Source: Antedon mediterranea (lineage: Eukaryota > Echinodermata > Crinoidea > Comatulida > Antedonidae). Taken from it: a stretch of DNA of 64,000 bases. Positions 1,802 through 51,400 of the stretch are shown in pieces. Location of the stretch: the NCBI RefSeq assembly GCF_964355755.1, contig NC_092672.1, forward strand, positions 31,802,501 to 31,866,500. Reading direction: 5' to 3'. The notes beneath the pieces are model-generated. The model was not told the DNA's origin and did not search any database. It saw only the letters and a list, made by a program, of their open reading frames with translations. A program made the translations under genes and the position numbers. The first letter of the stretch is position 1. Every line of letters starts with the position of its first letter.

Positions 1802-2380
1802 ATATTATATCACCCGAAGAAAGAGGAGGTTATAGAAAAGAACTAGAAATGATGGATCACTTACCACTTCGTTAATATTGTGTTCAAATCAAGTTGAATA
1901 TACTGTGGGCTATCCAAAATAATGTTTAAAAATAAATCAGCCAAGCCATCCACAAACAAAATGTTTATAAAAAGTTCCATCTGCGACTCAAAAGTATTAA
2001 ACAAATTTTATACGTATCAAAGTTCGTATAAAGCGTTCAAAATAAAAAATGTCAAAAGAAAGTTAAACAAAAGGTCGCAAAAACAGTTAATGATCAATAG
2101 TAAAAAATCAACTTATTTTCGGTCTTCGTTCTTCGTCTCTTTGCCTCGGTGTTTTTTTTCTTCTGTCTTCCGTTTTCTATTTCTGGGGTTGGTCCTGCAA
2201 TTGTTTCATCCAATAATCTTCTTTTCTTCTTCTTTTGCTCTTCTTTGTCCGTGTTCATTCATCCATCAGCATCTGCTGCTCCACAAATTCCAAATCTGAT
2301 CCATCTTCTTGTTTTTTTTTTCTTCTTTTTTCTTTTTGTTTTATTGGCTTCTGTGGGTCCAAATTGGTGTGGGAACCAGT

Positions 2381-6195: not shown

Positions 6196-6351
6196 GTTGA
6201 AATAGATTAATTCCTAAAAATCCACGATAAAAAATCCTCCAAAAATTAAGAGAAACAAATTAACGATGTATAAGGAAAATTCCCAAATGACCGGGAATTT
6301 TCCACTAACTTCGAACAATTTCAATAAAAATCCGACAAGTTAAATTCCACT

Positions 6352-7177: not shown

Positions 7178-7332
7178 AAGCTCTGTCTACACTATCAAAC
7201 TTTATTTGGCAACATGTGATGTGCCCATATATGGAAATGATGTCACCACCATATTTGAGCATATCACTACCATATTTGGGCACACCACACGTTTTTTTTT
7301 GCCAAACTAGTTTGATGTTTAGACAGAACTTA
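7178..7332. mobile_element. Family A palindromic MITE, copy 2
   Basis: Starts AAGCTCTGTCTACACTATCA and ends GTTTAGACAGAACTT. The inner arms TGATGTGCCCATATATGG and CCATATTTGGGCACACCAC pair with each other. Confidence 0.85.
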
Positions 7333-26584: not shown

Positions 26585-26747
26585 AAGCTCTGTCTACACT
26601 ATCAAACTATATGTGAAAAAAATATGTGATGTGCCCATATACGTATGGGTATGATGATGTCATATCACTGTGTTTGGGCATATCACTACCATATTTGGGC
26701 ACATCACACTTTTTTGTCAAACTAGTTTGATAGTGTAGACAGAGCTT
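26585..26747. mobile_element. Family A palindromic MITE, copy 9
   Basis: Both ends are intact (AAGCTCTGTCTACACTATCA and GATAGTGTAGACAGAGCTT), with an internal extra CATATACGTATGGGTATG. Confidence 0.88.
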
Positions 26748-29156: not shown

Positions 29157-32100
29157 TCATATTCTTGAAGTACTCGCAGCCTTTATGTCTTCTGTTTCTT
29201 CTTGTCCCTGTGACGCCTTAGTGAACATCAGAATCGGCCTTCGGAAACCTGATGGCAAAAAGAAATGGAGAAAGTTAAGTATAAAATCTCAATAAAGTGA
29301 ACAAATGAAAGCAAGTGAAATGAAAATGAAGTAAAGGCTGTACAGTAGAGCTCTATTGAATGGGATACATCCAGGATCCAACAAATTGTCCAATTATTAG
29401 ATGTGCCCCTTAAAGAGTGATTGGCTGTAGTGTTAAAACACTGTTTATTCTGGTTGATTTTTCACTGGAAAATGTTGACTTAACAAAAAATGTGTCCCTG
29501 AGTAGAGGTATCCCAAAGGAGTCTACTGTTAAAAAAAAAATTGAATTCTATAAATCTGTTCATTCACATGAAAGTAGCTGCTGCAAAAACAAGGATAACT
29601 TTGGATTCTGATTGGTTGGAATATTATACCAGACCTCTAAAAAAAGGGCATTTTCTCTTTCAGTTTTGGATATACAATACAGTAATTACAAATTTAGGCT
29701 AGCCCCTTAATTTGGATAACCAAAGGTAAAAAATACATCGACAAAATATGATTTACAATAGGTTAGAAGCTGATGCATTAGATTTTTTTAAATAGTTTCC
29801 ATTTATACAGCGCACTCTATAGTTTAGCCATGCTTTTTCATAAAGTTAATTACAAGTTAAGACACCTCAAAATACAGTAAATACAATTTTTCTATTATCC
29901 CAAATTCAGAAAACCAGAATTTCTTTTAACCAGAGTGTCAGGTTTTGTGATTGCACCAAAGAGGGGCTGTTGGACACATACCTTAAAAATGGTAAACACA
30001 TTACCATTTACAGGGTCATCGGCTCAAATCTCTCAATACATGATATTAAAAGATCAGCAGTACCAACGAGTCAATAATAAGTAGCAACAGAGAGCTTTCA
30101 TTTGCAATGACTCAAGAACAAGTTAGGCATGGTCATTTATTGTCTGCATGCTGCAAAGTTGGGACGTTCTCCCTAAAGCTCTGTCTACACTATGAAACTT
30201 TATGTATGGACATCACTACCACATTTGGATATATTATTACCATATTTGGATATATTATTACCATATTTGGATATATCACTACCATATTTGGGTATATCAC
30301 ACTTTTTTTTTGATAGTGTTGATATAGCTTTACTCTATTCCTTGACACATTTTTGGCACTCTGCAATGACCGGCAAGATATTAATGCGTAAGCCCTAGAT
30401 TAATACAAATCAAAACCTTCCTATATAATGCACTTGTCAATTGTATGACACTATACGACCCCCGGGAGAGGTGCTTTATGGGCGTGTCATTGACACAGGG
30501 GTGCGTCAAAAAACCTAAGTGGTACGTCGTTACCTCAATGGTGAGTAAATGTCTGTCACTTTACCACAAAAGGACAGTCATGGTGCGTCCTTGTTCTCTA
30601 AAATGTCCTTTACTAATTTTAATCTGGGTGCAACATTTTCACTCAATTTTGTGATGCAAGGGCATGTCATGACATACATAAAATATGACGCACACCAGAT
30701 ACCTATCCCTGGGGATGTGTGGTGGGTCATACAATTGACAAGTGCATATTTGTTACACAGTATTGCTTCCCGAGTGCTCAGTTATATTAAAAAATACCTT
30801 TAGATGGGTTGAGAGGAGTGCCTAGGCATTCACATTTGATGAACCCAACGTCTCTTAACAGATAGTCTTTGAAATGTTCGGGGCGCAGTTGAAGCTGGTA
30901 AAAATTCTTGTATGTCGTTTCCTGAATATAAAACAAAACAATCATCAAATGTAAATATTTACAGAAGGAAATGACAACAAATATTAAAGAATATTGCATT
31001 TCATACAGAAAGTATAATAGAAAGAATTGATTTATTATTCTTTAATAATTATTTATAAATCTTTCCATTTTGATAACAGCCCCCCCCCCCCCCCCCCACC
31101 CACCTTCTACATTGTGTACCATTTCTAAAATCCGCCAAGTTTTGGAAGAGATCAGGGTAAGGGTTATGTACGTACAATAAACAATGTACTGTAGTTCGTT
31201 CGCTCCTGCTTATATTTCGTTTATATTGTTGTATCAGCTTTTGAAGGGTGTATGTATTAGCCCCTCCTATGGTTTGGGAAGGGCCTCTTACTAATCTATT
31301 TTCATTAATTGAAACAAAATATATAAATTGATAGTCAAGTTTAGCAGGATGTAAAGGCTTAGTCTCAAGTTAGATAGCAACGAAAACAAAGAAATAAACA
31401 TGAAGCATCCTATCAGAAATAAATTGGTCATTTCCTCTGAATGGATTAAAAAAAATATATATATTATGACATAACAAGAAAAAAATGTTAGAAATATCTA
31501 TTATAATTGGAACAGAATATATCAAGTTTTTTTTTTGAAATATAAATTAAAAAAGTTTTCCCGAACCAATATCCATACAAGAAACATCGCACTTAAGCTC
31601 TGTCTTATAATTTTTAAACAGTGCATTAATACAGTAGGATTTTTCATTATGTCAATGCTCTGAGAATCAGATTTTTTATGTCAGACTTTACTTATTAAAT
31701 TTTGAATATAAATGTAGCAGAAATTGAACATTTTAATGTACTACTATACAATGATAACCTTATCAAAGAGTTGCAAAGATAGAATATGAAAAAAAAATAA
31801 ACCAAAAAAATCTGTGTTTCAAATGTAAATGCAATTTTTAAGTAAACTAATTTATGGAAATAGCAAAAATTAGATGCTGTCAAAAATGCCTAGTTTCGTT
31901 TGATAATGAACAAAAATATCCACCAGTACCAGCAATATTCTATTTAAAATGTACATTTTATAAAGTTAAATTAAATTTCCACCTCCTCACTAACAAAATT
32001 ATTTCTAAAAAAATTCAAAATCAAATGACCAGTCCGTCGCTATTTTTAGAATACCCAAATGCAGAGTTGAAAGATATAGAAAAAGTGCAATACCATACCT

Positions 32101-35100
32101 TATCTCGCTTCTAAATGAATAATCAGTATATATCACCCTGTACAGCTTTGCGATTCTTATTGATGCTTTTAGGTGTTTTTTTTTTTTCAATTTTAATATT
32201 TTAAGCTAAACTTTTTGAATGTTCCTGTATTGTATTTCTTGTGTAAATTGCCTCCTTTTTTTATATAATTATCATTGTTTTTATACTTTTATACAAATTT
32301 TAATATTGAACAAATGTAAATATCTTTGTAATTCAGCTAAGGCTGCGATAATGATATTGAAATAAATGAAATGAAAAAAAAAAAAAAAAAAAAAAAAGAA
32401 GCAAAACTTTAGTATTTGACCTTTGGTTGTACAATTATAGGTTGTCTATGGCAGTTGTACAGTTACAAGAAAGAACAATACATCTTCAAGGATATATCTG
32501 TCTATTGTATCATCATCACTGATGATCTAAAATAGCCTGAAGACAGGAAATGCTGCGTAATACGGTTGAACGCTATTACCATAATGAAAACTGGAAATGA
32601 ACTCTTTTGGATAAATTTACTAGGGGCAAGAAAGTTGAAGAATTGAATTTCAGTCACATGATTCCTGAATGCCATTAGAAAAGTTTTAGCATATTTTATT
32701 AATACAGTGCTCCCTGTACATTGGCGATTGCATGTTGTTTTCAGGTTGTTTACCCACAAAAATCATTTGGATAAAGGTTTTATCAAACTCAGTTCAACAT
32801 GCCTAAAGGAGCCTACTACAAGGTCATAATTAACGTATTGTTTAAAAACAAAACCAATCTCCTAAATTATTTCTTGCACCATCAGAATAATAAGGGAGAT
32901 GTGAAAATCTCTCTATTATAATATTTTCCTGCATCATCCTTGCAATAACCATGGAGTAAACTCCATGCAATAATAATTGTTTAAATTAATGTACATTCAA
33001 ATCCCATATTTGCAATTCTGTAACTTTGTTATACAACCCCTTCTTTGGAACATCTCAATTAGGGTATATCTCTATTCAAGGAACATCCCTATTACGGGAA
33101 CATTTTTTGGAAAAGCATGAAGGGAAAAATAAGTTTTAACACTGTGGCCAACCCATATTCAAGGACACCCTATTAAGGGGACACTGCCCATGAAACAAAC
33201 AAATATTTTTATGGGACACTTTGTTGGATCCTGTAATTATATTGGATCTATCCTTTTTTATCTTTTCAACTTGTATCAAATAAATTTAACAACCTTGAGT
33301 GGATGGAAATACAATTGCCTTTCTTCAAGATGATAAAATTGATTGAAGTTGGCCTGGAATAAAACATTCCCAGTTCATGCCCATCAGAATGATTGTTATT
33401 TATGGATGTATTCAATTTGTTATGCAGATAGGTTACTTCGGTCTACATTGGATACGAAATTGAACATTAATGTCAAGTGATTGATTGTATCCGTACTATG
33501 TGCAAGAAACTCTTAGATAATGTAAACCGTATTACTCATCTAGGTCTGGGGAGAGGACTGCCTTGTTATTGCTGAACCATATTTACTCAGTGGTCCCTTT
33601 ACAGTGTTTTATTTCGGAGGGATATGCAACGTCTGCATTGACTTATTTCCTGTCTAATTTACCCAATTTCAGAGGGGGTAGCTTGCTCAATTGAGTTAAG
33701 CCTTGTCTACACTATCAAACTTTATGCAACATAAAAATGTGATGTGCCCATATATGGTCCTAATGATGTTATATCACTACCATATTTGTGCACATCACAC
33801 TTTTTTGTCAAACTAGTTTGATAGTGTAGACAGAGCTTTACACTGAATGTATTTTGCTTTAGTTGTATACAGATACATCAATCATAAGATCCTGTCTACT
33901 ACAGTAAAGTTAACCCATAATGCATTGCCTTCATTCCCTAATCTCCCAATCCATTACATTTGCTCTTACCCAGCATTATTCATTTGTATGTTGTGGTGTT
34001 GATGTTATACTGGTTGAGTAAATAAACGAAACGAACACAAAACAAATAGACTGCTGGTAGCCAGGGCTCATGCAGAATGATCAAAAGTACACATTAGGCT
34101 GTTGACCACACTGTTCCCTTATGGCTACACATTAGGCTGTTGACCACACTGTTCCCTTATGGCTAAAATCATCGGCAACTGCTTCAGACAAGCAGCATAA
34201 TATTGTTATTATGTGAAAGTGTAAATTGATGCATGACTCTATGCAAGTTTTATCTGGAGCAAAGTTATTAGGGAAAAGTGTGAGTTTTTAGATTGACATA
34301 CAATGCTGAACAAAATTACTAAAAATAACAATACACAGTAAACATAATACAACCACTAGCTAAAAATTGTACAAGATAGAGCTACTACCGATATAGATTT
34401 ATAGACCAATTATGGCTACATTTAGTACTGGTCGGGAGCACAGTAAAAATGTGGGAGAGCAAAGTTGTGCCCATTCAATTTGTGCAAATTGCAATTCATA
34501 AAGGAGGGTCTTCTTGCAGTGGTTACGTCACTTTTCGATTACCGTATATCCTCTGGTATAATCCCACCACCTAAAACACAAAATTAGGCCGACTGGGGGG
34601 TTAGACTATACCCAGGGAAAGTCTGGTTCAGGGAAAACAAAGATTGGTAAGCATTTCTGTAAAAACTCATCTGAACTGGCTAGAGAGAAGCTTACATCGG
34701 GATCATAAGTCAATTCTGGAACTAATACCCGGGCAATGCCTGTTTGTGAAATCAGACATAAAGTAGGGATTTACAACCGAAGTGGGATTATAACCGAGGA
34801 TATACAGTACTTTGTATTGTTTTTTATTTTTCTGTAATTTTTGTTAAAATTAAATAAATCAGATTAGCAGCTCCCAGGAGGAACCAGGTGAGAAACGGAT
34901 CATCCAATTTAACTAGCTTCTTGTAAAAAATTAAGTTAGGCCTAGAAAAGATTAATAAAATAAATTATGCACTTGGCAAGCCAAATTGTTACCTCCTTTG
35001 TTTACTAACGTCTTAATTATGAAAGGCATGAGTAATTGTACAGGAAAGCAATCAGGATAACTCGTGGAATGTTTTGTACGCAAGAAACTGAAATTTGAGA

Positions 35101-38100
35101 AGGTCCCTGTGCTTGATCAGGAAGTCAACAATCATCACAAACCCCAGTGGAATCGCACAACGAGATCTAACGTAAAAAACTTTCAGATGTGCAGAGACTA
35201 AGTTTTGTACGAGAACATGATGATCATGAATAGTTTCTTTGTGATTATACAGTACTAAGAGAGTCCGATAAAACTTATACAACTATGCCCATTTATACAA
35301 TAAATTTTGCATTTTTTTCAAAGTGTCTTAAAGTTAATAAACATTCTGATGATTGCTGTCCCAGTGTACTGTATGTTTGAATAACATAATTTCCGGCCAC
35401 ACCTAAAATTGATGTCAAGAAGATATCCTGCAACACCCAAATTAACGTCACTCCAGAAGTTATCCTGCCACACCCAAAATTGATGGCACTCCAGAAGATA
35501 TCATGCCACACCCAAATTGACGCCACTCCAGAAGATATCCTGCCACACCTGAATTTGATGCCATTCCAGAAGACTACCAGTCACAACTGAAAATGATGCC
35601 ATTCCAGAAGATATCATGTCACACCCAAAATTGATGCCACTCCAGAAGACTTCCGGTCACAACTAAAATTGGCGCCACTGCAAAAGATATACTGCCACAC
35701 CTGAATTTGATACCACTTCAAAAGACTCCCTGCCACACAAAAACACTACTCCATACACCTATTACCTAAAACCAGATTCTTACAACAATTGATTTGAACG
35801 TCAGGTTGGTTAACCTATCTATCCTTATCTATTGCCATCTTACTACCAACACACCCAGAAAAACTTTTGTTTAAACACATTGCATTGTTGCAAACAAAAA
35901 CTAGTTCAAACAACATAGAAATTCTAACTAACTTCACAAATAAAATTATTACAGTACTAGCCAACTGTGGGATATGATAGCTTGTAGTGTAAATGTTAAA
36001 ATTCCATAAAAATGTATGGAAATGATGATCAATTATAGAAATTACACCAACATGAATAGAGTGTAACACGCAAACGTGCGCTATTTTCCTACGCCCTTGT
36101 GCAGCTAAGCGCGTGATAACAACAATACAAACCGTCACTTTTTTCTTCTTGCAGTAAGATGACCAAGACTGTGGTTCGAGAATCAGTTGACCCCCAGGTC
36201 GAAGGGCAAGAAAGATACGCCTGAACATCCTCTTTAGACCAGCGTCTCCCCAATTTAAGTGAACCCACTTTGTCATACTGAGACACATGATGACATCATA
36301 CTCTGGCTTTTGCGTCGACAAATATTCATCTTTCTCCAAAACAAAATTTGCCTAAAAAATAATTGAAACATCTATATGAATAAAATATAAACCACTTGTT
36401 GTTTCAATGAAATAATAATATTTTATAGCTTAAAGACCCCTTCCCTGCAATTTTGGACGTTTTTTGGAAAATAATACATATATATCACTTTAAAAACATT
36501 AAACCATGTCATTCCTTGTCTTAAATGTACGTTTTATGGTAAATTATGATAAAAAGTGAGAAACAATGCACTACCTAAGTAGCTCGCGGCGATCGACCTC
36601 TCGTGGACGGTCTTAGGCCTAGCCTAGCTAGGCTTAGTTTTGTAGGCCTAGCTGGTAAACATCGGTAACGTACGAACATCGTACGCGAGCTATATACCTA
36701 GCCTGGCGTTGTATAGTTGCTGCATTAATTGTCTTTCTATTTTTGCCAGACTCAGTTGATACAAATTGGGGAAAACCCGGTATTTTCGCTGAAAAGTTAG
36801 GAGTCTTCCATTTGTTTTGGCCTCACGATCGATCGAAAAGTGGGCGAATTACAGGTGAAAAACAAAAATATCAATCCGCGCGCAATGCATTTTGGGATTT
36901 ATAGCGGGCCGCTATAATTATTAGAATCGACTTATTTTTCACATTTTTAACCGTTTAAAGACGAAAAAAGTTATCGCAATAGGACCATATAGTATTATTT
37001 TTACATTAAATATAGTTTGTGATCTTAAATTAGATCTAAAAAACGTAGGGAATGGGGCTTTAAGGAATGTTAGTACAGTAATATATTGCATGTAATCACT
37101 ACAAGCAGCCTGACTACAAGGTACTATAGTATAAGAAAAGTGGGTTTCAATTTCTAGAATCTCACTAACAAAATAAAAACTTATAACAATATCTATACAA
37201 AATCAATCCAATATTTCTTCTGTATTAGCCAGGTCAATAAAACTTCAATAGGCGTTCTCCAATCAAGGAGGCTCAATGATGGGTCTTTCTCTTCCACCAA
37301 TAGCAAGGCAGGTTAGGGCTTGTTTATAATAGTTAATAATAGTAGTGAACTATGAACCTAATCAATAAGGGATCCTCTCTAGCACAGCAGCTTTCCGAAA
37401 AACAAGGTGTCCCTGAATGTGTTTATAGGGACACACTAATCAATTATAGAACAATAATATGGTTAAGTGCTTAAATGTTAAAGTATAATACTGTAATACC
37501 AAGGTAATAATTAAAAACATATGATCAGTCAAGAAATACTACATATAGAAAAATTCAACAATATAAAAAAAGCTGTTAGCAAACTGCCGTGAAATACTTA
37601 CACATCTAAACATAACATTTGCTGGAAAACGCGGACTTGATGCATCCCCAACAGAAACGTTCGGTAACTCTTTCACAGGACCCAATGTCGACGTCAAAGC
37701 ATCAGGAAATTGTCCGCCATCTTTCGTCTTCATTTCGTTTTTTTCTTTGTCAATTAGTAGACACTGTTTTATGTTTTTTCGTGCGATGCCTATCAAATTA
37801 CTATCAATGTCAATACCGGTGATTTTTGATGGAGATAAATTTTTCGCGATATACAGCGTTACGTGCCCCGTGTTGCATCCAATGTCTAAACACGCTTTCC
37901 CTTCAAACCATTCCTTGCGGAAAAGTACCAACCTCACATCCTCTTCTTCCGCATTTCGGTATCCATAATAGCGCGTATAATTACCATATTGAAATTTCTT
38001 GTTCTGTTCTTTAAATTTTTGATTTTTTTTGGGTTGTTGTTGTTTATCTTTACTGTTCTGTCGGCGGTATTTTGATTTCTCTGGTGAAATTTTTCTTCGT

Positions 38101-39011
38101 TTATTATCAGTTTTTGAAGTAACATCATCGGTTTCTATCAATAAAGCTTTGGCTATTTTATTCGTAGGCTCAACTCGTTTTCGTTTTCTACTTTTTACAG
38201 TCTCTGGAAGAACAGGTGAAACTATTTTGTCGATAACTCTGTTTGGTACAACATAAATTCTTGATGCAGTGTCTAAATTTAGTTCTAACATTCTTCGTTT
38301 CGAGCGGTCAGATATTTCATCGTCGTTTTTATCTCTTGATAATCTCTTCTTTTTCTTTCCCGATCCAAATTTACGAGAAAATATTGTTGTAGTTAATTGC
38401 GGTTCTTCATCCTCAGCTGTAACAGAGTTCAATTTTAATGGGTCCGTAATATCGCGTGGGATGATAACTGGATCGGGATCTTTGTTCAACTGGGGTAACG
38501 GTGAAGTGGCTGGTGTCTTCTCATCAACCTGATTGGCTAAACTATTTAAATTTAACGGATCGTGAAGATTTCCACCAAGAAGAAATTTTGTTGGACAAAT
38601 CTTTTCTGTTGTTCTTCGTCTTTTTCTAATAAAACCTGGGTTTTTGGAAGGGTAGTGCAAACTTTGCCGTTTTGACCGAACCCTGTTCGTGTTGTTATTA
38701 TACGGAACATTTCCTTTTGTATTCTCGTCGTGTTTCTTTAAACGCACATCTTTATTATCACATTTTGTTCGTGAATCATGGTTTGTAATTTCGGAGGCAT
38801 TCTCCTCTAAACCTTTTAATTTCTCGCATAACTGCCTTGGCAAAGAATCAGAGACCATCCCTGGACCAACTTCTGAAGAGTGTCTCTGCCTCGTCGTCTC
38901 TCTCGAACAACTGATCACTTCTCCAGAAAAATGATCACTTTTTGAACATGAGTCAACAGCCCTAATTCCGTTTAGGGAACTTTGAGTTTCTACGGAAGCC
39001 ATTTCTAACAT
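29157..39011 (-). CDS. MEPCE: 7SK snRNA methylphosphate capping enzyme
   Basis: Four coding exons join in frame: 37602-39011, 36133-36351, 30798-30921 and 29157-29248. They give 614 residues from the first ATG (human 689). The second in-frame ATG at 39002 has the better context (AGAAATGGC) and may be the true start. The N-terminal half is basic and disordered but keeps [18 protein letters not shown] (141-158) and [11 protein letters not shown] (187-197). The Bin3 methyltransferase domain starts at [13 protein letters not shown] (340-352). The SAM-binding motif is [17 protein letters not shown] (374-390), followed by [16 protein letters not shown]. Exon 2 adds [19 protein letters not shown] and [14 protein letters not shown]; exon 3 adds [14 protein letters not shown]; exon 4 ends the fold with [11 protein letters not shown]. 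It methylates the gamma-phosphate of 7SK RNA and stays in the 7SK snRNP that holds P-TEFb. Confidence 0.97.
30176..30330. mobile_element. Family A palindromic MITE, copy 10, with an internal expansion
   Basis: Starts AAGCTCTGTCTACACTATGA and ends TAGTGTTGATATAGCTT. A 22-bp unit containing TATTACCATATTTGGATA is repeated several times inside. Lies in MEPCE intron 3. Confidence 0.82.
30428..30747. mobile_element. 320-bp MITE with perfect terminal inverted repeats
   Basis: Left end ATGCACTTGTCAATTGTATG and right end CATACAATTGACAAGTGCAT are exact reverse complements, and the match continues inward for at least two bases. Contains CGACCCCCGGGAGAGGTGC, shared with the element at 22.1 kb. Lies in MEPCE intron 3, 50 bp from an exon. 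Confidence 0.88.
31080..31097. repeat. Poly-C run (18 C)
   Basis: An uninterrupted run of 18 C, followed by ACCCACC, in MEPCE intron 2. On the MEPCE sense strand this is a G-run with G-quadruplex potential. Length may be unreliable in the assembly. Confidence 0.9.
32200..32397 (+). mobile_element. Possible retroposon 3' end with AATAAA and poly-A tail
   Basis: The segment ends TGATATTGAAATAAATGAAATG followed by about 24 A (32374-32397), with AATAAA at 32361-32366. It looks like the 3' terminus of a LINE or other retroposed transcript. The upstream part shows no reverse transcriptase, so the copy would be 5' truncated. Lies in MEPCE intron 2, antisense to MEPCE. Confidence 0.45.
33698..33838. 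mobile_element. Family A palindromic MITE, copy 11
   Basis: Left end AAGCCTTGTCTACACTATCA; right end GATAGTGTAGACAGAGCTT is intact. Lies in MEPCE intron 2. Confidence 0.87.
34088..34164. repeat. Perfect 38-bp tandem duplication
   Basis: Two exact copies of a unit starting TACACATTAGGCTGTTGACC. Lies in MEPCE intron 2. Confidence 0.9.
34543..34811. mobile_element. MITE with 28-bp terminal inverted repeats
   Basis: The left arm starts TACCGTATATCCTCTGGTAT and the right arm ends ATAACCGAGGATATACAGTA. They match as inverted copies over 28 bp with about four mismatches, both running into ATCCCAC. About 269 bp, no reading frame, in MEPCE intron 2. Confidence 0.78.
35395..35735. repeat. Tandem repeat, about 38 bp period, roughly nine copies
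   Basis: Units resemble CCACACCCAAAATTGATGCC plus ACTCCAGAAGATATCCTG, with substitutions and small indels. Lies in MEPCE intron 2, about 400 bp from exon 2. A minus-strand reading frame across it is a by-product of the repeat. Confidence 0.88.
36655..37010. repeat. Dispersed repeat D, copy 1
   Basis: Shares, in reverse orientation, a chain of motifs with 51110-51480: the pairs GTAACGTACGAAC / GTTCGTACGTTAC, AATTGTCTTTCT / AGAAAGACAATT, TTTTCGCTGAAA / TTTCAGCGAAAA and AACCGTTTAAAGACGAAA / TTTCGTCTTTAAACGGT. Lies in MEPCE intron 1. Confidence 0.65.
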
Positions 39012-39956
39012 AACTATTTACATTATCTTAAAATATAGTTCATAATCACCGATTGAAAAATGTAAACACACGAGGTTCTTGTTGACGAAAAAGGTCACGT
39101 CCCACTTATTTGCATAAAATATGCAATGTGTGACAGCAGCTGCCCAGATCGAGCCCAATCTGTTCCAGAAGCTCTGCGCCACACAGGCTTACAGTCTCGC
39201 TATGATTCTGAAAATATACACAAGAATTATTATTGAAATAAAAGTTGTGATACTCGTTTTTCTGTTAGTGTAATATCTTGATCTAAAAACTAGGGAAAGT
39301 ATGAAAACTTTGCCTTTGGAACCTACTCACTACCTCGCTACTCTCAACACGCTCTGTTCTCTGAGACCGTTCTCGTCTCGCTTTCTTTTGACGAAAAATA
39401 ATCGTTTTGTCATCTCCAGTTTTTTAAGCGCCCTCTATATTCACGTGGGAGATTCAACTTTTTTCACTCTTTTTTTTTCAGAGCAGCAGACGTCGTACGC
39501 ATACGGCAGACTGCAACAGAAACTTTCGGTAAAAAAGGCGATTTATACAAGAGACCAGAGTCTATAAGCACTTTCAACTTCAATCTCTTTTTTTAAAAGA
39601 ATACTGTATACCGACTGTCACGTGTAAGTTGATTACAAAATGATTTACTGTACTTTATTTACTTTATTTACTGGGCCGCGTGGAGGTCACCACCCAGGCC
39701 AAACCATCAGAACAGGAAGAGAGGGAGGAGGAGAGGGCTGGGACCTGACTCGGGGGGAGGAGAGAAGAGGCGGATCGATGGATCGGAGAGCAACTCCGTT
39801 TTTTTTTCTCTAAATATAGGCCTAGCCCTAGGCCTCCTGTGGTTGGGGAACAGGGGTGTGGCATTAATTTGTCGCTTTGTCGTTAAAATATTATATTCAT
39901 TGTCTTTCAGTTTTCAATTAATGAACTGCAAGGGCCTAGCCTAGGCCTATTACAAA
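39012..39956. promoter_or_regulatory. Divergent promoter region between MEPCE and ZCWPW1
   Basis: About 945 bp separate the two start codons of head-to-head genes. ATTTGCAT (39108-39115, an octamer in reverse) and ATGCAAT (39121-39127) form an inverted pair on the MEPCE side. On the ZCWPW1 side an acceptor-like TCTTTCAG ends at 39910, so its 5' UTR may be spliced. CTAGGCCTAG-type motifs cluster from 39820 on. Confidence 0.6.
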
Positions 39957-42900
39957 ATGCTGTCAACTGAACAATATGCAAGTCTTGCCAAAAAAGCTGT
40001 CGAAAGTGCAAGAAAGGATCTGGCTGAATGGGATTGCGGCGAGCAAAGTACTACCACCAGTAGAGGTAGTACTAGGCTACTAGTATTATTAGGCCTAGGC
40101 CTAAAAAGGCTCTAGACTAGGGCCTGGCCCTAGACCTAGGATAGATTGTATGTTGGAGGGTTTGTGTCAAATTGAAGATGTAAAAACATACTAATTTTTT
40201 TTTATTAATAATAATATATATATTTTTTTTTTGATCCAATTTTTAGTAAACTTGAAAAACTATTGCGACATTATAAATTGGCATAGCCTAGGCCTATTCA
40301 ACAAAAGAAATCTTACACATTTATTTTTCATGATAATAATTATTAATATCTTTAACTAAATTTATAAAATAAAAATCTTTAAAAAAAAGGGATTGTCAAA
40401 TAAAAATGTCATTTAATCAAATTGGGCATTTGAGAGAAATGGATTTTGAAGAAACATGCCATCAACATAATAGAAATTGTAGACTATTTTATTTTAGAGG
40501 CAGATTCTGATGTTAAGAATAATGTTAATAATCCAGTAGTCATGAAGAAATCCATAGACGTCACAGAGTATTATGAAGATGTTAACAACATGGACCTAAG
40601 CCAGCTGTAAGTGTTCGTGTCATGTACATTTTGATCGATACATTTACTCCTTATTTTAGGCCTAATGTATACTTTATAAATTTTGATTGTTAATTATTAT
40701 ATTACACAATTACACCATTTTCAGAAAACACTAATTTAAGGACATACTTGTTAGGTCTCCTTAAAGCGTGGTTCCCACTAGCGACGCAACGCAAGGACGT
40801 AACGCAACGCAAGTGAATTGACCAATCACAAGCGATGGCTTATTCGCTTGTGATTGCTAACTGTCTATAACTTCGCTTGTCATTGGTTAAAACGCTTGCG
40901 TTGCGTTTACGTCCTTGCGTTACGTTCTAGTGGGAACCAAGCTTTAGCGGTTCTATTGTATATGCTCTTTACAATACAAGATAATTTTCCATTCAAAAGC
41001 AGCTAATAAGGCTTCTATCAAATATGTACCAAATAGCTCTAATTATTTACAACTAATTAGCTGGCAAATAAGTGTAAAGCATAGTACCTCTTTATTGTCA
41101 TAATCATTGCTAATTAATATAAACATATCCAATTGTATAAATTTAGTTTTAACACACACAAAAGCTAGGCCTAGTAACAATTGCAAGCCAATGCCCTGCA
41201 ATGTTATTTTTATAAATCTTTAGAATTGCTGCAGAACTTGAAACACCTTTAATGAGTGATGACGATGATGATATGGGGGACATGTCATTCCCTAAGTTGA
41301 TATCATACAAGGAAACTAATATGAGACCACCACAGATGATGAACTACCCTACCAAGGTAGCCAAGGTGCATCAACCAAATGGTAACAATTTAATTAATAC
41401 ATACTTTTATTAAATCAATTGACTTCCTCTTCCAATGAGTTAGGGACTTTCACTCATTCCAAGCTGCTACGTCATCTCTCCACTTCATTAAGCTCTGTCT
41501 GCACTATCAAACTTTATGCGACAAAAAATTTCATGTGCCCATATATGGACATGATGATGTCATATTACTACCATATTTGGCTATATCACTACCATATTTG
41601 GCACGTCACACTTTTTTGATAGTGTAGGCGGAACTTAACTTTTCTACCTCCAAATTCTTGATAATCTCTCTCTCACCTTCAGGTTGTTAATGTGTGGATG
41701 AGTTAAGTGTATGAGTGATTAAAGCAGGCACACTGCAGCCTACATCCATAAAATTGGTGCAGGTTAACGGCTGTCCTCGTCCATAGTTCTGGTGGTGGAA
41801 CACAGTGTACACATATGGCTTGGGTGCACTTTAAAGAACCCAGGACATATTTTATGATGAGTAGGTGTTATGGTTGAAATTCATCCCCTAATGATGTTAA
41901 TAGCAGTTATGGGGCCTGCTGTTTCTATCAGGATTAACCTGCACACAATCTCAGTATAGCTTCATTTGAGCTGTAAAGCTCTGTGTACACTATCAAGCTA
42001 TTTTGACAAACAAAATGTGATGTCCCCAAATATGGTAGTGATATGATGCCATCGTATCCATATATGGGCACATCACATTTTTTTGTCACATAAAGTTTGA
42101 TAGTATTGACAGAGCTTAAAAGTATTACAAGTGTACATTATGTGTATACATACATCCTTTTTATTAGGAAAGTCAAACAAAACATTCAACCCTCCAAAGA
42201 ACAAAAAGATGAAACACTCTACCAGCTCAATGCCAAGACCATCCAAACAGGAACTAATTAACAACCACATCCAAAGATCAAAGCAGCAAAAGAGGCAAAA
42301 CACCAGCAAAACACAAGAATTTAAAAGACCCAAGGAGAAGTTTCAATCCATGCTAGATGCGTTCAAGCAGCGAGTGATCCCAGAGCGTGGTGTATGGGTT
42401 CAGTGTATGCGTACAGGCTGCAACAAATGGCGTTACCTATCTGATGTCACAGACCCATCAACCGTACCGGAGTTGTGGTCTTGTGACCAAAATTCAGGTA
42501 TAGAAAGTTCATGTACTATAAATGAATTTGTATATTAAAGATACATTGTCTCCTGGAAAAAATATTTTTTTAAATATATTTGTTGAACATGATATTCCAT
42601 AATAGAATGGATAATAAATAATAATAAAAACTGGATCGAAAAAATATTTACCTGAAAAAACTCTAATTTAAAGCTCAGGTACAGACATGAATTTTAAATA
42701 TAATATTTGGTTAATTGTACATAAATAAAATATTTGTAACAGAAATCAAGATGAAAAAATATGAATTTCCCTTAATATGGTCAAATACAAAATTTGACAA
42801 AATTCTTCTATAAAAACCAAGACCTTTTTTCAGTAGTTAGGTAGTTAACTTAATGTAATAACATGTCTGGTGACTCCCTAGAAGGTGAAAAAAGATGGTG

Positions 42901-45900
42901 GATATAGGGTGGATACTTTTTGCTATAGCATGAAAATAAAAATCTGAAGTTAAATAAAAATATCAGAAATGTAATATTCAAGTTATATTACCTATTTTAG
43001 TCATCTGATAACATTTTTTACCACACCGTTTATTTTTCATAGCTTTTTAAAATGCCTCTCTATTTACAAAATTTGTGTACAAAAGAATAGAGATTTTACT
43101 GTGTAATTTGAACTATCCCCCCACTGATAAGAAAGTGCTTATTTTCAACAAGCTTGTGTAACATAAATAAAATTCCAAAAATTATGAAACATATAAAACT
43201 ATAGATCGACAATTATTGGAATGTATGATCAATAGAAATTTTTTGCCCGCACCTGGCCTTTAAAGCAAAAAATTATAAAATTGGCTATCATGTCAGTGGG
43301 TTTTGGCTGAATTTAACTGTTTGTTTTTTTCGGTGAAAGTTATTAACCTGATTAAAACTACAAAATAACCTATTCAAAATCTGATTTATTAACCTTCATT
43401 TTTCATGTTTTTTGAGGCCAATAATACATCTTTTGGAGTAAGACTGCCCTGTGTGTAACCCCTACATATTGGGCTAAAAAAACGTATAATTTGAATAGTT
43501 TTTACATATGAAAATGTTTTATTTTACGCCAGATGTCATGTACAATACATGCGATAAGCCTGAAGTTGATTGGAAAAATGTGGAGCAGCAGCAGGGATTT
43601 GTTGATACTAAATTCACTGTTGGAACGATTGTTTGGGCTAAGCTTGCTGGATATCCATGGTAAAAACATTACCTTAAGTTTGTCTGCAAATCCTGTAAGC
43701 AATATTTATACACTAATACAGAATAGAGATAGATTCAAGGTGGGAAACATGGATCAAAATACAATGTAAAAGATAGGACATAATAGTTCAGCACTACACT
43801 CAAATTGCAATTTGCAGGCTCTATTTCAAAATCATAGATTTAACCACTGATAAATGATATTGTTGTTTTTAGAAACTCTTTGTAAGAATATATATATATA
43901 TCTTTCAGGTGGCCAGCTATGGTAGAGGAAGACCCAAATGTTGGAGAATATTTTTGGCTCGTTGATACATGGAGAACCAATCCAGTAAGTTTTGCCGGCC
44001 AAAATACATATGCAAAAATACATTTTAGTAGAAATTAATTATTGTTACTATAATATCTCGCTATTCTTTTTCAGACCGACTATCATGTGGTGTTTCTTGA
44101 CAAGAACATTTCTCGTGCTTGGGTCAATAGATCATTCATTAAAATATTCTCTGGTCCAAACCAGAATTTAAGATGTGTAAGTACACTACACTAATTCACA
44201 GTCTGTTCAGACTTTTGTAAAATACTGGCATTCCTGTATAATATAGTGATTTGTTATAATACGCAAGTAAGTTGAAGATAAAGTATGGGTGGGTGATATG
44301 TTTTAAAATTCTATGCTGGTCTTGCTTTAGACTGTATAAAGTTCTGTCTACACTATCAAACTAGTTTGATGTGCCCAAATATGGTAGTGATATGATGTCA
44401 TCATGTCCATATATGGGCACATCTTTTTTTTGTTACATAAAGTTTGTGGATGTGTCCACCATGCATATCCATGAATGTTGCATCAATAAGATGCATCGAT
44501 ATGATACCATGAATATATACTATTTTCAGGTGAAAGTGAAAGGAAAGCTATTCCATCAACTAGAAGAAGCTAAATTGACAGCAGTAAAGGCCAAGACTCT
44601 TCCAATAAAGGTAAAAGATCTTTAAAAACAGAGATTGAGAATCACACTGTACCAATACCAAAATACATGTGGTATTATACTTTACAATACACAATCCTGT
44701 ATAGTTTTCAGGGAAACAGGCCCTATTTATATATCTTGAAATATAACCATAAGATCTTCACATTTTAATTCCTAAGTATCTTATCTTGTATTTTAGGAAC
44801 GTATCGCAGCTTACGGATTCAGTTCTCATTACACAGGCAGATGGGGTGGAGCCGATCGCTCACTTGTAAAAGGTATTTTGTTTTTAAAGACAATCTTACA
44901 GCGCTATAAGACCAAAGTCTATTTGAACAACTTTTAAAGATGTATTGTCCCCCAAAATCATGAAAAATAAAGATGTTTAAAATCGGACTTTGAATAGGCC
45001 ATTTTGCAGTTTTAATGAAGTTGTTCACTTCCATAAGAAAAAAAAACGGGGGGGAAAATTATTTCACCTATAAAAAGACAAAATAAACAGTTAAATTACC
45101 CAAAAACTCATTGTCTTCCAGACAATTTGACAATTTTTTGCTTTAAATTACATTTTTCTCAGGTAAATAAATTTTTTTCAGACCCAATTTTTTGTGAGAG
45201 TGAATAACTATTATGTGACATTAAAATAACATATTCAACAAAAAAATATTTTTTTAGGGGGACAATATATCTTTAAGTTTAAAGAAGGAACTTAAATTGT
45301 GACTTGGAAATGACGGATGTAACATGGAAGCTGATTCCAGACAGTAATAAAAACAAGTGTATATGTACAACCTAGAGTTCAATTTCACATAGCATTATTG
45401 TTTTTTGTATTAATAGGTTTAATAATTGTCTTTTTAAATTTTCTATTTTTAGAATTTGAGCGCAAGTGGCCTGGTCATGGAAAGGTGGGTACAATTGATA
45501 CATTAGAGGAGAAAGAAGATGAGGAGGAAGACGATGAGGAGGACGTTGAGACGGAAGAGGAGATTGCTCCTAGTCAAAGAGTGAAACATAAAAAGGACAA
45601 CACAATGAAAATGGAAAAACAGAGAAAAAGAAAGCGTGCCAGAAGTGATGGTATCAAACCAAAAAAGAGTAAAACGGATAATGAAAAAACAAACGAAGGG
45701 AACAGTAAACTGGATGAAATAGACAAACCAAATGATGTGTACGAGTTTGCTGATAACTCATTAAATGAAGAGGATGTAGAAAAGCAGACTGATGATAATA
45801 ATTTAGATAACTGCTTAACTGTAGACAAGTCGAATGATAAAAGTGATGTAGGCATGAATGAACATGAGAAAGATGATCTGGATAAAGAACAGAAAGAGAA

Positions 45901-47437
45901 GCAACAAATAACTGAAGATACACCTGAAAACACTGAAACGATTGAAGTGGATACAAAACAAAATGGTACTGGTGAAGAAAATACACACAAGGATGATATA
46001 ACTGAACCAGAAATAACAAATGCAGTTGAGGATAAAAATGTGGAAAGTGATCAAAATATGGAAGAAGGGTGTAAACAGAAAAAGATGATGAAAAAGTCAA
46101 AAGTCACATTTGAAAATACAGAATTAGAAGAATGTAATACAAAGAAAGATAAATCAAAGAAGATGATGAAAGAAATGAAGACAACTGAAAATAAAAAAGA
46201 TAGTGACGACAAACAGGCAGATGAAGACACTTTAAGTAAAGACAGTGAAGTTGATGATCATGCTAATGTAGAAAATGATGGAATGAGCATCCAACAGAAG
46301 AAAAAGAAACAGAAAAAAGTGAACACCACAACTGGAAATGATGATAGATTAGAAAATCTAAATACCAGTAAAACAAGAGATGAAGAGAAAGACGGCAAGA
46401 AAAAGAAAATAAAGAAACAGAAAAAAGTGAAAGATACAACTGGAAATGCAGATTCTGTCGATAGTGTAGAGAATGTAGATAACAGTAAGACAAAGGAGGA
46501 TGAAGAGAAAGATAGCAAGAAAAAGAAAATAAAGAAACAGAAAAAAGTGAAAGATACAACTGGAAATGCAGATTCTGTCGATAGTGTAGAGAATCTAGAT
46601 AACAGTAAGACAAAGGAGGATGAAGAGAAAGATAGCAAGAAAAAGAAAATAAAGAAGCCAAGAAAACCAAAAGAATCTGTTGAAACAGACTTATCGAAAA
46701 AAGATAAAGAGAAGAAAAACTCAAATGGATTAAAGAAGGCTGCTAAAGATGTGGAAGGAACGAGTAAAGAAAAGAAAGTCAAACCTCTTGGTACTAAAAC
46801 GACAAACCTAAATAAGAAAGTTGCAGAATCGAAAGAAATCACAAAAGAAGTTTCTAAACCAAGTAAGCTAAAACCAAGTTTCAAGGCACCACGGAAGAAA
46901 GACAGTGTTACTGCAAACAAACCCTTTAAGCCACCTACTGTGAAAGACAACAGTAACAAGAAAGAAAACAGTTTAGGAGAAGAGAATGGAAACACTCACA
47001 AAGTGAATATTACCCAAGATAACATTGGAAACAAGAGTGAAGGAAAAGAAATAGACCAGACTAAAAGAACAGATAAAGAGCAAGAAACTAAAGAAGATGA
47101 AACTTCCATTAATATGGTTAGCAAGAGTAAACATGAGAGCGAGAAATTAATTGACAAATCTTCTGATGTCCTAAATACAGCAGCAGAAGAGAAAGTACAG
47201 AAAGATACCAAAGCCAATAAGAAAGAAGTTACTGCAGATCTCCTGAGAGAAGAAAAGTGCAACATCTTTCCAAGAGCTGAAGATCAGTTGGTGCCATCAA
47301 CCGACAATGATATGGATCTTACGTTGGATACTGACATAGATTCATGGGATCAATTAACACCATGCGAGATTAGAAAGCATAATCTAGAGGTGCTGGACGA
47401 GGATGACAACTCACAACCATTTGAGATTGAAGAATAA
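39957..47437 (+). CDS. ZCWPW1: ZCWPW1-like CW zinc finger and PWWP histone reader
   Basis: Ten exons join in frame, all GT-AG: 39957-40065, 40498-40606, 41224-41381, 42168-42497, 43533-43659, 43909-43984, 44075-44176, 44530-44610, 44797-44872 and 45453-47437. They give about 1050 residues (human ZCWPW1 648). The CW finger starts at about residue 200: GVWVQCMRTGCNKWRYL, ELWSCDQNS and YNTC provide four cysteines and the cage tryptophans. The PWWP domain runs from about 265 (VGTIVWAKLAGYPWWPAM) through YHVVFLDKNISRAWV to about 335. Human ZCWPW1 reads H3K4me3 plus H3K36me3 and helps repair meiotic breaks made through PRDM9. The last exon encodes 660 residues of Lys/Glu-rich low-complexity tail ending QPFEIEE. 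ZCWPW2 is an alternative, but adjacency to MEPCE favours ZCWPW1. An AATAAA lies at 47661. Confidence 0.9.
40763..40946. mobile_element. Family B inverted-repeat element, copy 3 (complete)
   Basis: The left arm GTGGTTCCCACTAGCGACGC, GGACGTAACGCAACGCAAGT, TTGACCAATCACAAGCG is mirrored on the right by CGCTTGTCATTGGTTAAAAC, GCGTTTACGTCCTTGCGTTA and AGTGGGAACCAAGCTTTA. About 184 bp, the best copy in the window, in ZCWPW1 intron 2. Confidence 0.88.
41490..41637. mobile_element. Family A palindromic MITE, copy 12
   Basis: Left end AAGCTCTGTCTGCACTATCA is intact; right end TTTGATAGTGTAGGCGGAAC is diverged. Lies in ZCWPW1 intron 3. Confidence 0.85.
41690..41970 (+). mobile_element. tRNA-derived SINE-like element
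   Basis: A weak A-box-like GAGTGATTAAAGCAGGCACA and a degenerate B-box region (GCAGGTTAACGGC) are followed by CCATAGTTCTGGTGGTGGAA and CAGTGTACACATATGGC. The last two blocks recur in the element at 49.6 kb, which has much better A and B boxes. Lies in ZCWPW1 intron 3. Confidence 0.55.
41976..42116. mobile_element. Family A palindromic MITE, copy 13
   Basis: Ends AAGCTCTGTGTACACTATCA and GATAGTATTGACAGAGCTT. Inner arms are in the reverse order relative to copy 12. Ends about 50 bp before ZCWPW1 exon 4. Confidence 0.87.
42536..43436. mobile_element. Family C element, long copy
   Basis: Starts TTAAAGATACATTGTCTCCT and ends with TTTTTCATGTTTTTTGAGGC then AATAATACATCTTTT, a diverged inverted copy of its start. 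About 900 bp of AT-rich sequence without a reading frame. Fills most of ZCWPW1 intron 4. The grouping with the 44.9 kb copy rests on the ends only. Confidence 0.5.
44339..44452. mobile_element. Family A palindromic MITE, copy 14 (shortened)
   Basis: Starts AAGTTCTGTCTACACTATCA, contains GTGCCCAAATATGGTAGTGA and CATATATGGGCACATC, and loses its right TIR after ACATAAAGTTTG. Lies in ZCWPW1 intron 7. Confidence 0.8.
44934..45276. mobile_element. Family C inverted-repeat MITE (best copy)
   Basis: TTAAAGATGTATTGTCCCCC on the left is mirrored by GGGGGACAATATATCTTTAA on the right, with one mismatch in 20. AAATCATGAAAAATAAAGAT follows the left end. Lies in ZCWPW1 intron 9. Confidence 0.8.
46381..46660 (+). 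repeat. 120-bp tandem repeat inside the ZCWPW1 coding exon
   Basis: Bases from 46441 and from 46561 are almost identical over 60-base blocks, with one difference in the first block. They encode two consecutive 40-residue units with DEEKDSKKKKIKKQKKVKDT and TGNADSVDSVEN. A diverged third unit precedes them. The reading frame is kept. Confidence 0.92.
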
Positions 47438-48431: not shown

Positions 48432-51400
48432 TTAATTTTCGTCTGAATCTGAAGAAAAATGGAAATCTTCCACAACATCTTCATCATCACCACCAACATC
48501 AATTGGCTTTCTTTGTTCTTTCTTTCCTTTCATTTTTCCATTTGTTAATGATTTACTTCTGTTTTTATTTTTACCAGTTCCCTTTTCTTCTTCATCACTT
48601 CCCTCATCTTCATCAATTTCTCCTCCATCTTCATCACTTTCTCCTCCCTCATCACTTTCTCCATCCTCCTCATCACCCGACATGTCATCTTCCGAAGATC
48701 CAATATCCAAATCACTCAGATAATCATCTTCATCTGAATCATGCTGTGTGTTCTTCTTTTGAAGTTTTCTTTCGGCTCTTTCTAATATGTCATCTTCAGA
48801 ATCACTACCAGTTGAGTTGAAGAGGTCACTGAACTCCACCTTGTCCTGTTTCTTCTGCTTTCGTTGCTTTTCAATTGTCGGCAGCTCATCATCAATAAGC
48901 TATAAAGACAAATTAAAACTGGATTAAAAACAAAATTGAATCTGGCACAGATGATTTCTTGTATAAGATGAGCACCACACTGTTGGACCATAGAATAGCA
49001 AATACCTGATTGAATGAAGGTTTGCTGTAGTGTTAAAATATATATTGCTCATCATTCATTTGACAGTAAAGTGTCCCCTTAATAGGGTGTTCTGTAAATA
49101 GGGGTTTGCTGTAGTGTTAAATATATATAATATATTCATTTCACAGGAAAGTGCTTTCCTCATAGGGTGTCCCCTGAATAGAGGTTTGCCATAGAATTTA
49201 CAATATAGATTGCCATTCATTTTACAGGAAAGAGCTATGTCAAAAATAGATAGCAAGAATTACTTACCCTTTCTTTACCAGCTTCTTCTCTCAATAGTTC
49301 CTCTTGTCTCTTTTTCTTGTACGATACATAATGCTTTATCAATGGCGTTGACTGCTCTTTCAAATTCTTTTCCCATTTAGACTATAAAAACAAATTATTC
49401 AAGTAAATTACCTACACATAGTTCCTTCAGAAAGACTTAACAAGCCTCTCAATATAAAGAGATTTTGCCAGAGGGACAAGATGATAAGATAATGATGTTG
49501 GTTGGATTTGAACAAATAACACTGGGATTGACAGGCAACCATATTAACACTCAAGCTTACAGTGCCACTATGGCAGACTGAGCTAACTAATGAGTGGTTA
49601 AGACCATGTAGCCATAACATCGGCAAGGGTTCGAGGCTCAATCGCTCCATGGTTCTGGTGGTAGAATAAGTCTTTTTGATAAGGACTATAAACCATAGGT
49701 TCAGTGTACACATCTAGCTCATGTACAACCTAGTACATCTTTCTAGACGAGTAGGGGGGGCTACCCCGGTGTGTTAGTACATCACAGTCACTGATCACAA
49801 CTGGGTCCTCTGGGAGAACAGTCTTTAAGTGAAGATGTCACTCAGTATAAATAAAATATTTTCATTAAAAATATTTCAACGAATCATTAAGGTGTTATTT
49901 GAATACAACCGTGTAGTCTCACCACAGCTTGGCTATCAGCAATGCTGAAGGCGACCGTCTCTCGCTTCCTCGTTATCATGGCAAAGTTTTCTTGAATTTT
50001 GTCAAGAATAAGTTTGATTGGCTTGCTGTGATTGGTTACTTTACAAGATTTTAAAAACTTCTTGAGCTATAAAAAAAGAAATCAGATTAAATATAAATTT
50101 ATTACCATTTTTCCATAAAATGTGAGCAGTATTATGCATTTTGATAGGTGAACGTCCTATCTGGTCAGTATAAGATCTTTGTCGTATAATTACCTGGATA
50201 ATGGCTGGCAAAGCAAGCTCTGGGAAACCTATACACTGACTGTGAATCTGCATGTGATCCAGTAACAAGTCACACACTTGTTCAATAACACCATCCTGAA
50301 CGACAAAAGAATATAAATGGTGGCTATATTAGTCAACTTAATTAAAAGTCATTGGCAAGCTTCCGTTGTAGGATGGAGACTGTAATTCAAGACCGTGACG
50401 AGCGGAATTTGTGTTACAATGTCAAAATATAAAAATTACAGTCTCCCTCATCTACTCCCTCGAACACAAAATTAAAAAACTTGATCATGTGACTGGACAT
50501 TTTTACTGGTTTCATTCAGGTTCACCAGTTTTGAGACATTACATCGTGGCAAAATATAAAAGTACTCATATGTTTGTACTGACAGTATTGTTATATCTGT
50601 ACTCTGTATGTGTGAATTGCGCATCAGTCACAAACTGTGCTGAAGACTTCCAAGACTTAATCTTGATTCCCACTTAGAACGTAACGCAAGGACGTACATG
50701 CAACGAAGGTGAGTTGACCAATCACAAGCAACAGCTGGTATGATCCATCGTGTTGTGATTTTTCAAATTACTTGCATTGCATTTTATCCTAGTGGGAACC
50801 AAGCTTTAGTAACACAAAAAGTCTCTACATTACCACTAAATGTCTGTTCCCACTTACTGTAAATGCTCTCTCCTTTATCTGTGGTTTGGATAGTTTCAGG
50901 ATAACAGTAAAGTTAATGGGTTTCATGCTGACTGCCGAGTTCTTCTTATTGAAATTAGTGTGTTCTAGAATCTAAACAAACACACATTTATGTTAAAAAC
51001 ATAGTACTAGAATATACATTTTAAAGACATGTTTCCTACGGGTTTTTTTTCAATCTAATTTAAGGTCTCAAACTGCATTTATGTAAAATAAAATACTTTA
51101 TCAATATATGGGCCTATTGCGATAATTTGTTTCGTCTTTAAACGGTAAAGAATGTGAAATATAAGCCCGCTATAATTAACCGGATGCATTGCACACAGAT
51201 TTATTTTATTTTGGTTTTTTCTGTGATTCACTCACAAAGGTGAAAAAAATGCAAGAATTGTAATATTTCAGCGAAAATACTGGGTTTCCCCCGAATTTGT
51301 ATTACAGATTCTGTCAAAAACAGAAAGACAATTATTGTAGCAACTAAACAGTGTCGGGCTAGGCAATGTTCGTACGTTACCGTTAACGTTAAATGCAGAA

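What the first reader, a model, noticed from the sequence alone, without database searches (positions are those of the whole stretch)
36133..42497. MEPCE and ZCWPW1 keep a divergent, head-to-head arrangement
In human 7q22.1 MEPCE and ZCWPW1 are adjacent and divergently transcribed. The same orientation occurs here, with about 945 bp between the ATGs. A transcription regulator of 7SK and a meiotic chromatin reader sharing a promoter region over this distance suggests a constraint on the promoter. In this window the pair lies between 1p36-type genes, hinting that the two human regions were once linked.
Basis: partly seen in the sequence, partly recalled or inferred. Interest (0 to 1): 0.62.

Follow-up and report, generated by a model that had tools for sequence, protein, structure and literature searches.

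The report
Ancient MEPCE–ZCWPW1 head-to-head gene pair
An invertebrate chromosome carries intact MEPCE and ZCWPW1 genes head to head as in humans, and the same genome encodes a complete PRDM9, so a gene pair used to place meiotic recombination in vertebrates appears to be older than vertebrates.

Summary
MEPCE (minus strand, 4 coding exons, 614 aa) and a ZCWPW1-type CW–PWWP gene (plus strand, 10 coding exons, 1050 aa) are adjacent and divergent, with exactly 945 bp between the ATGs. MEPCE identity is firm (305 bits to human MEPCE, 34 to BCDIN3D). The plus-strand gene is ZCWPW1-like rather than ZCWPW2-like (CW domain 59 versus 29 bits), and no second CW–PWWP gene was found.

Neighbours UBE2J2, B3GALT6 and NOC2L are 1p36.33 genes. 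SSU72, the single GNB1–4 ancestor, a p53-family gene and PPP1R35 lie on the same chromosome, but TAF6 and POP7 (7q22.1) do not. Linkage before the vertebrate genome duplications is therefore supported for the MEPCE–ZCWPW1–PPP1R35 block, not for all of 7q22.1. Promoter constraint was not shown.

More interesting, this non-vertebrate genome also encodes a complete PRDM9: KRAB-like and SSXRD-like N-terminus, SET with its tyrosines, and 12 homogenised fingers varying at DNA-contact positions. One paper states that ZCWPW1 "emerged in jawless fishes"; this genome contradicts that. PRDM9 in invertebrates was already known. Species and expression are unknown.

The parts
29157..39011 (-). MEPCE orthologue, complete CDS in 4 exons (39011-37602, 36351-36133, 30921-30798, 29248-29157), 614 aa; Bin3 domain encoded at about 36300-29217
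   Evidence: gene model; Bin3 143 bits, full length; 305 bits to human MEPCE chains vs 34 bits to the BCDIN3D-type RNA 5'-monophosphate methyltransferase
39012..39956 (.). 945-bp interval between the two ATGs; candidate bidirectional promoter (inferred). CpG o/e 0.86 against 0.43 in the ZCWPW1 body and 0.48 in MEPCE introns; no repeats, no shared promoter motif found
39957..47437 (+). ZCWPW1 orthologue, complete CDS in 10 exons (39957-40065, 40498-40606, 41224-41381, 42168-42497, 43533-43659, 43909-43984, 44075-44176, 44530-44610, 44797-44872, 45453-47437), 1050 aa
   Evidence: (gene model)
42395..43564 (+). CW zinc finger (H3K4me3-reader type), split over exons 4 and 5; W256 equivalent kept here and W303 equivalent just downstream kept, E301 equivalent is Val
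   Evidence: residue numbering from PMC7314539
43622..44562 (+). PWWP domain (H3K36me3-reader type), split over exons 5-8
14637..17242 (-). UBE2J2 orthologue (exons seen: UBC core fragment 17054-17242, tail with C-terminal anchor 14637-14948); human 1p36.33 neighbour
   Evidence: 97 bits UBE2J2, 72 bits the UBC6-type E2, 37 bits or less for other E2s
23947..24948 (+). B3GALT6-type galactosyltransferase, single coding exon; human 1p36.33 neighbour
   Evidence: Galactosyl_T 124 bits; B3GALT6 rather than another family member is by my reading
48435..58167 (-). NOC2L orthologue, multi-exon; human 1p36.33 neighbour, convergent with ZCWPW1
   Evidence: Noc2 130 and 88 bits over several exons

Best explanation
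This is an inherited head-to-head pair. MEPCE and ZCWPW1 were already adjacent and divergent in the common ancestor of this invertebrate and vertebrates, on a chromosome that also carried today's human 1p36.33 genes. After the two vertebrate genome duplications, alternate copies were lost, leaving MEPCE-ZCWPW1-PPP1R35 on the 7q22 copy and NOC2L-B3GALT6-UBE2J2 on the 1p36 copy. The two genes most likely share one short unmethylated bidirectional promoter between the ATGs (inferred, not shown). Their products work separately: MEPCE caps a small nuclear RNA, and ZCWPW1 reads H3K4me3 plus H3K36me3. The latter marks are what the PRDM9 found in the same genome is expected to write at meiotic break sites (inferred). 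Shown: gene structures, domains, adjacency, chromosome linkage, presence of PRDM9. Inferred: shared promoter, meiotic role, ancestry of the order in other phyla.
For: Complete open gene models with 945 bp between ATGs. MEPCE vs BCDIN3D resolved (305 vs 34 bits); the genome's only other Bin3 gene found is BCDIN3D (106 vs 31 bits). ZCWPW1 vs ZCWPW2: CW 59 vs 29 bits; CW-PWWP alignment score 402 (41% identity) vs 192, against 198 for the two human paralogues with each other (human sequences from memory). The other three CW loci are MORC, KDM1B-like and MORC2. Same-chromosome markers: PPP1R35, SSU72, single GNB1-4 ancestor, p53 family 154 kb from the window. GNB1 1p36.33 and GNB2 7q22.1 in PMC6952978. 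Single let-7 and single GNB1-4 locus fit an unduplicated, non-vertebrate bilaterian. PRDM9: SET 168 bits vs 109 for PRDM11, complete 9-exon frame, fingers varying at helix -1, +1, +2, +3 and +6, N-terminus similar to human PRDM9, matched by 0 of 1000 shuffles.
Against: TAF6 and POP7, also 7q22.1, are on C5/C10 and C10, so 7q22.1 as a whole is not one ancestral block. PPP1R35, next to MEPCE in human, is about 0.43 Mb away here. No second invertebrate was examined, so ancestry of the adjacency rests on two lineages, one of them recalled. No expression data; the 945 bp show no recognisable shared promoter motif. The CW domain has Val at the position of human E301, one of three residues changed together in the mouse reader-dead mutant. 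KRAB and SSXRD fall below Pfam detection.
Confidence: 0.77

Rival explanations
1. The adjacency is inherited but not constrained: gene order simply decays slowly in slowly rearranging genomes, and the two promoters are independent.
For: Neighbouring genes of the same ancestral segment (UBE2J2, B3GALT6, NOC2L) also stayed within 45 kb without obvious regulatory ties; no motif or repeat in the 945 bp points to a shared element.
Against: This pair kept exact adjacency and orientation in two lineages while PPP1R35 lies 0.43 Mb away. Head-to-head pairs within 1 kb are retained longer than tail-to-tail pairs in vertebrates (PMC2423431).
Confidence: 0.4
2. The plus-strand gene is the single ancestor of both ZCWPW1 and ZCWPW2, and ZCWPW2 is a later, fast-diverging vertebrate duplicate. 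This refines the main reading and does not compete with it.
For: Only one CW-PWWP gene found in this genome; human ZCWPW2 is about as far from human ZCWPW1 as from this gene (198 vs 192, human sequences from memory).
Against: A duplication before this lineage split, with ZCWPW2 lost or missed here, is also possible, since absence by this search is not proof.
Confidence: 0.55
3. The link to 1p36 genes is a lineage-specific translocation of MEPCE-ZCWPW1 into a 1p36-like segment, not ancestral linkage.
For: TAF6 and POP7 of 7q22.1 lie on other chromosomes; only one genome was examined.
Against: PPP1R35, next to MEPCE in human, is on the same chromosome, and the GNB family that sits in both human regions has its single ancestor there.
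Confidence: 0.15
4. Independent origin: the two genes became neighbours by chance in each lineage.
For: None beyond the lack of a wider survey.
Against: Rough probability 2.5e-5 to 2e-4 per pair (inference from chromosome share and an assumed 20,000 genes).
Confidence: 0.02

Closest known systems
Human MEPCE/ZCWPW1 divergent pair at 7q22.1
   Same: Same two genes, adjacent, divergent, short interval (human side from own knowledge)
   Different: Here the neighbours are 1p36.33-type genes (UBE2J2, B3GALT6, NOC2L), and PPP1R35 lies about 0.43 Mb off instead of next to MEPCE
Vertebrate ZCWPW1 (dual H3K4me3/H3K36me3 reader at PRDM9 hotspots; PMC7237205, PMC7314539, PMC7494361)
   Same: CW then PWWP, C-terminal helical extension after PWWP, lysine-rich tail, W256 and W303 equivalents
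   Different: Val in place of E301; a longer acidic/lysine-rich tail; found outside vertebrates, whereas PMC7237205 states that Zcwpw1 emerged in jawless fishes
PRDM9 of invertebrates (Oliver et al. 2009, PMC2779102; sea urchin mentioned in PMC8835667)
   Same: KRAB-like, SSXRD-like, PR/SET and a homogenised finger array varying at DNA-contact positions
   Different: No essential difference found; new here is its co-occurrence with a ZCWPW1 orthologue, which I found in no held paper
Ancient bidirectional gene pairs (Yang et al. 2008, PMC2423431, in vertebrates)
   Same: Head-to-head, under 1 kb, retained over long times
   Different: That survey covers vertebrates only; shared regulation is not shown here

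Membership tests
MEPCE (7SK capping enzyme) | Methyltransferase domain with complete Bin3 domain | tested here: met
   Bin3 143 bits, positions 1-109/109
MEPCE (7SK capping enzyme) | Closer to MEPCE than to BCDIN3D | tested here: met
   305 vs 34 bits; the other Bin3 gene is BCDIN3D
MEPCE (7SK capping enzyme) | 7SK RNA substrate present in genome | tested here: inconclusive
   RF00100 found nothing, with no positive control
ZCWPW1 | CW zinc finger followed by PWWP in one protein | tested here: met
ZCWPW1 | Closer to ZCWPW1 than to ZCWPW2 | tested here: met
   CW 59 vs 29 bits; 402 vs 192 (human CW-PWWP from memory). No multi-species tree was built
ZCWPW1 | H3K4me3-reader residues W256, E301, W303 | tested here: inconclusive
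   alignment: both W kept, E301 is Val; binding not testable
ZCWPW1 | Germline expression and PRDM9-dependent recruitment | not testable with these tools
   no expression or chromatin data
ZCWPW2 | Best match to ZCWPW2 | tested here: not met
PRDM9 (gene at G000:C1:38032006-38037587) | PR/SET of the PRDM9 type with catalytic tyrosines | tested here: met
   168 bits PRDM9 vs 109 PRDM11; the three tyrosine positions (numbering from memory) are Tyr
PRDM9 (gene at G000:C1:38032006-38037587) | KRAB and SSXRD domains | tested here: inconclusive
   Pfam finds neither, but alignment to the human PRDM9 N-terminus (from memory) beats all of 1000 shuffles for each part
PRDM9 (gene at G000:C1:38032006-38037587) | Tandem homogenised C2H2 array varying at DNA-contact positions | tested here: met
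   12 fingers, the most variable positions are helix -1, +1, +2, +3 and +6
Bidirectional promoter | Start sites within 1 kb, divergent | tested here: inconclusive
   ATGs 945 bp apart; start sites not known
Bidirectional promoter | Shared regulation of both genes | not testable with these tools
   no expression data

The most novel reading that the evidence does not exclude
The PRDM9-ZCWPW1 writer-reader system for placing meiotic recombination is older than vertebrates and works in this invertebrate: PRDM9 marks hotspots through a rapidly changing finger array, and ZCWPW1, kept in its ancestral place next to MEPCE, reads the marks.
Probability: 0.4. Interest if true: 0.75.

Novelty: new member of a known kind. 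Interest (0 to 1): 0.5.

Why it matters
One of the main ZCWPW1 papers treats it as a gene that appeared, like PRDM9, in jawless fishes (PMC7237205), and its coupling to PRDM9 has been studied only in vertebrates (PMC8892340). A ZCWPW1 orthologue in its human-like gene neighbourhood plus a complete PRDM9 in one invertebrate genome puts both parts before vertebrates, and makes the question of when PRDM9-directed recombination began testable in an invertebrate. The gene order also gives positional support for orthology with ZCWPW1.

Tried and rejected
7SK RNA search found nothing and is uninformative, as no control held it. SSXRD Pfam search missed a gene whose SSXRD-like exon is visible, so Pfam absence was not taken as absence. 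Promoter motif, repeat and promoter scans of the 945 bp gave nothing usable; the sigma-70 scan does not apply to animals. Papers on MEPCE with microsynteny and on ZCWPW1 in invertebrates gave nothing relevant. The species could not be named: let-7 places it in Bilateria, and unduplicated GNB1-4 and let-7 argue against a vertebrate. A structure prediction was not run, as domain identity was already clear by sequence.
Full report
What is there. The window lies at G000:C3:31802501-31866500 in a 354-Mb genome of 18 contigs. Splice-consistent gene models give MEPCE on the minus strand (4 coding exons, 614 aa, 39011 to 29157) and a CW-PWWP gene on the plus strand (10 coding exons, 1050 aa, 39957 to 47437). 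All introns are GT-AG and no stop interrupts either frame.

Identity of MEPCE. The Bin3 domain is complete at 143 bits. Against solved structures the methyltransferase region scores 305 bits with human MEPCE and 34 with the BCDIN3D-type enzyme. The only other Bin3 gene found in the genome has the reverse preference, 106 vs 31 bits, so both paralogues are accounted for.

Identity of the plus-strand gene. CW 42 bits and PWWP 50 bits. The CW domain scores 59 bits with ZCWPW1 and 29 with ZCWPW2. Over CW-PWWP and the following helical stretch, the alignment score is 402 (41% identity) with ZCWPW1 and 192 with ZCWPW2; the two human proteins score 198 with each other (the human PWWP sequences are from memory, the CW parts agree with PDB entries). 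The genome has three other CW loci: a MORC gene, a KDM1B-like gene (identity from the CW sequence and a downstream FAD-binding fold) and MORC2. No second CW-PWWP gene was found, which does not prove absence. Of the three residues changed together in the mouse reader-dead mutant (human W256, E301, W303; PMC7314539), both tryptophans are kept and E301 is Val.

Surroundings. UBE2J2 and a B3GALT6-type galactosyltransferase lie on the MEPCE side, NOC2L on the ZCWPW1 side. In human these are 1p36.33 genes (own knowledge). I then tested markers chosen before seeing where they lie. SSU72 (1p36.33) is on C3; a p53-family gene (TP73 is 1p36.32) is on C3, 154 kb right of the window; PPP1R35 (next to MEPCE in human) is on C3, about 0.43 Mb from MEPCE; and the only strong GNB1-4 type locus is on C3. 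GNB1 is at 1p36.33 and GNB2 at 7q22.1 (PMC6952978). TAF6 is on C5 with a second TAF6_C locus on C10, and POP7 is on C10. C3 is 11% of the genome, so four of six on C3 is unlikely by chance (binomial about 0.002), but two of the three tested genes that are specific to 7q22.1 fail. The fair reading is that the block MEPCE-ZCWPW1-PPP1R35 belongs to the same ancestral chromosome as 1p36.33, that 7q22.1 is a mosaic, and that the vertebrate separation is explained by genome duplication followed by alternate gene loss.

What kind of animal. One let-7 gene and one GNB1-4 locus fit a bilaterian without the vertebrate genome duplications. The species is not known to me.

PRDM9. A search with the PRDM9 SET domain (sequence from memory) found a match at C1:38034640-38036025. 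The surrounding 30 kb give a 9-exon, 772-aa open frame at C1:38032006-38037587. The SET region scores 168 bits with PRDM9 and 109 with PRDM11. The N-terminus aligns with the KRAB and SSXRD regions of human PRDM9 better than all of 1000 shuffles, although Pfam detects neither. The last exon encodes 12 nearly identical fingers; the most variable positions are helix positions -1, +1, +2, +3 and +6, with five residue types at +3 among the 11 regular fingers (six counting the last, degenerate one), while most other positions are invariant or nearly so. Oliver et al. 2009 (PMC2779102) reported concerted evolution of the fingers in Nematostella, Lottia and Capitella, with positive selection at -1, 3 and 6 in Nematostella, so an invertebrate PRDM9 is not new in itself. 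I found no held paper that reports ZCWPW1 in an invertebrate, and PMC7237205 says that Zcwpw1, like Prdm9, emerged in jawless fishes. This genome contradicts that statement.

Promoter. The 945 bp have CpG o/e 0.86 and MEPCE exon 1 has 1.23, against 0.43 in the ZCWPW1 body and 0.48 in MEPCE introns. This is what one expects if germline methylation covers the gene bodies and spares a start region between or at the 5' ends, but other stretches of the window are equally CpG-rich (1.22 over UBE2J2). No repeat and no convincing shared motif were seen. A shared promoter is plausible, constraint is untested.

How it most likely works. MEPCE is a housekeeping RNA-capping enzyme; ZCWPW1 in mouse is a meiotic reader of PRDM9 marks. 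Their proximity most likely reflects an old shared start region, not a shared pathway (inference). Both being needed in germ cells would be enough to tolerate it. The PRDM9-ZCWPW1 pairing in this genome is the part with biological consequence.

Verdict. The linkage claim is right for a block, not for the whole of 7q22.1. The promoter-constraint claim is open. The find is an old gene arrangement of a known kind, raised in interest by the co-occurrence of ZCWPW1 and PRDM9 outside vertebrates.

Noticed in passing
G000:C1:38032006-38037587 (loci L021-L023): Complete PRDM9-type gene with 12 homogenised zinc fingers varying at DNA-contact positions, outside vertebrates.
   Followed up: yes
window, 21 sites, e.g. 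7180-7201, 26587-26745, 33700-33836, 41978-42115: A short element with ends GCTCTGTCTACACTATCAAACT occurs 21 times (0 expected), several times as inverted pairs about 115-160 bp apart: probably a miniature inverted-repeat transposon.
   Followed up: partly
window 17689-21726: Long direct repeats (three copies 85-86% alike, two blocks 97-98% alike about 2.65 kb apart), suggesting a recent segmental duplication between UBE2J2 and B3GALT6.
   Followed up: partly
window 1262-1804: Open frame that reads like the C-terminal part of a Ty3/gypsy integrase (GDKVWLDDP...NWIGPYLITKV).
   Followed up: no
window 5749-6213: Open frame of 155 aa with a possible signal peptide and a proline/tyrosine/glycine-rich body; no Pfam match.
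   Followed up: no
G000:C2:14617092-14617412: BCDIN3D orthologue, the genome's other Bin3-domain gene found.
   Followed up: yes
G000:C3:32020625-32021426: p53/p63/p73-family gene 154 kb from the window, on the same chromosome as the other 1p36-type genes.
   Followed up: partly
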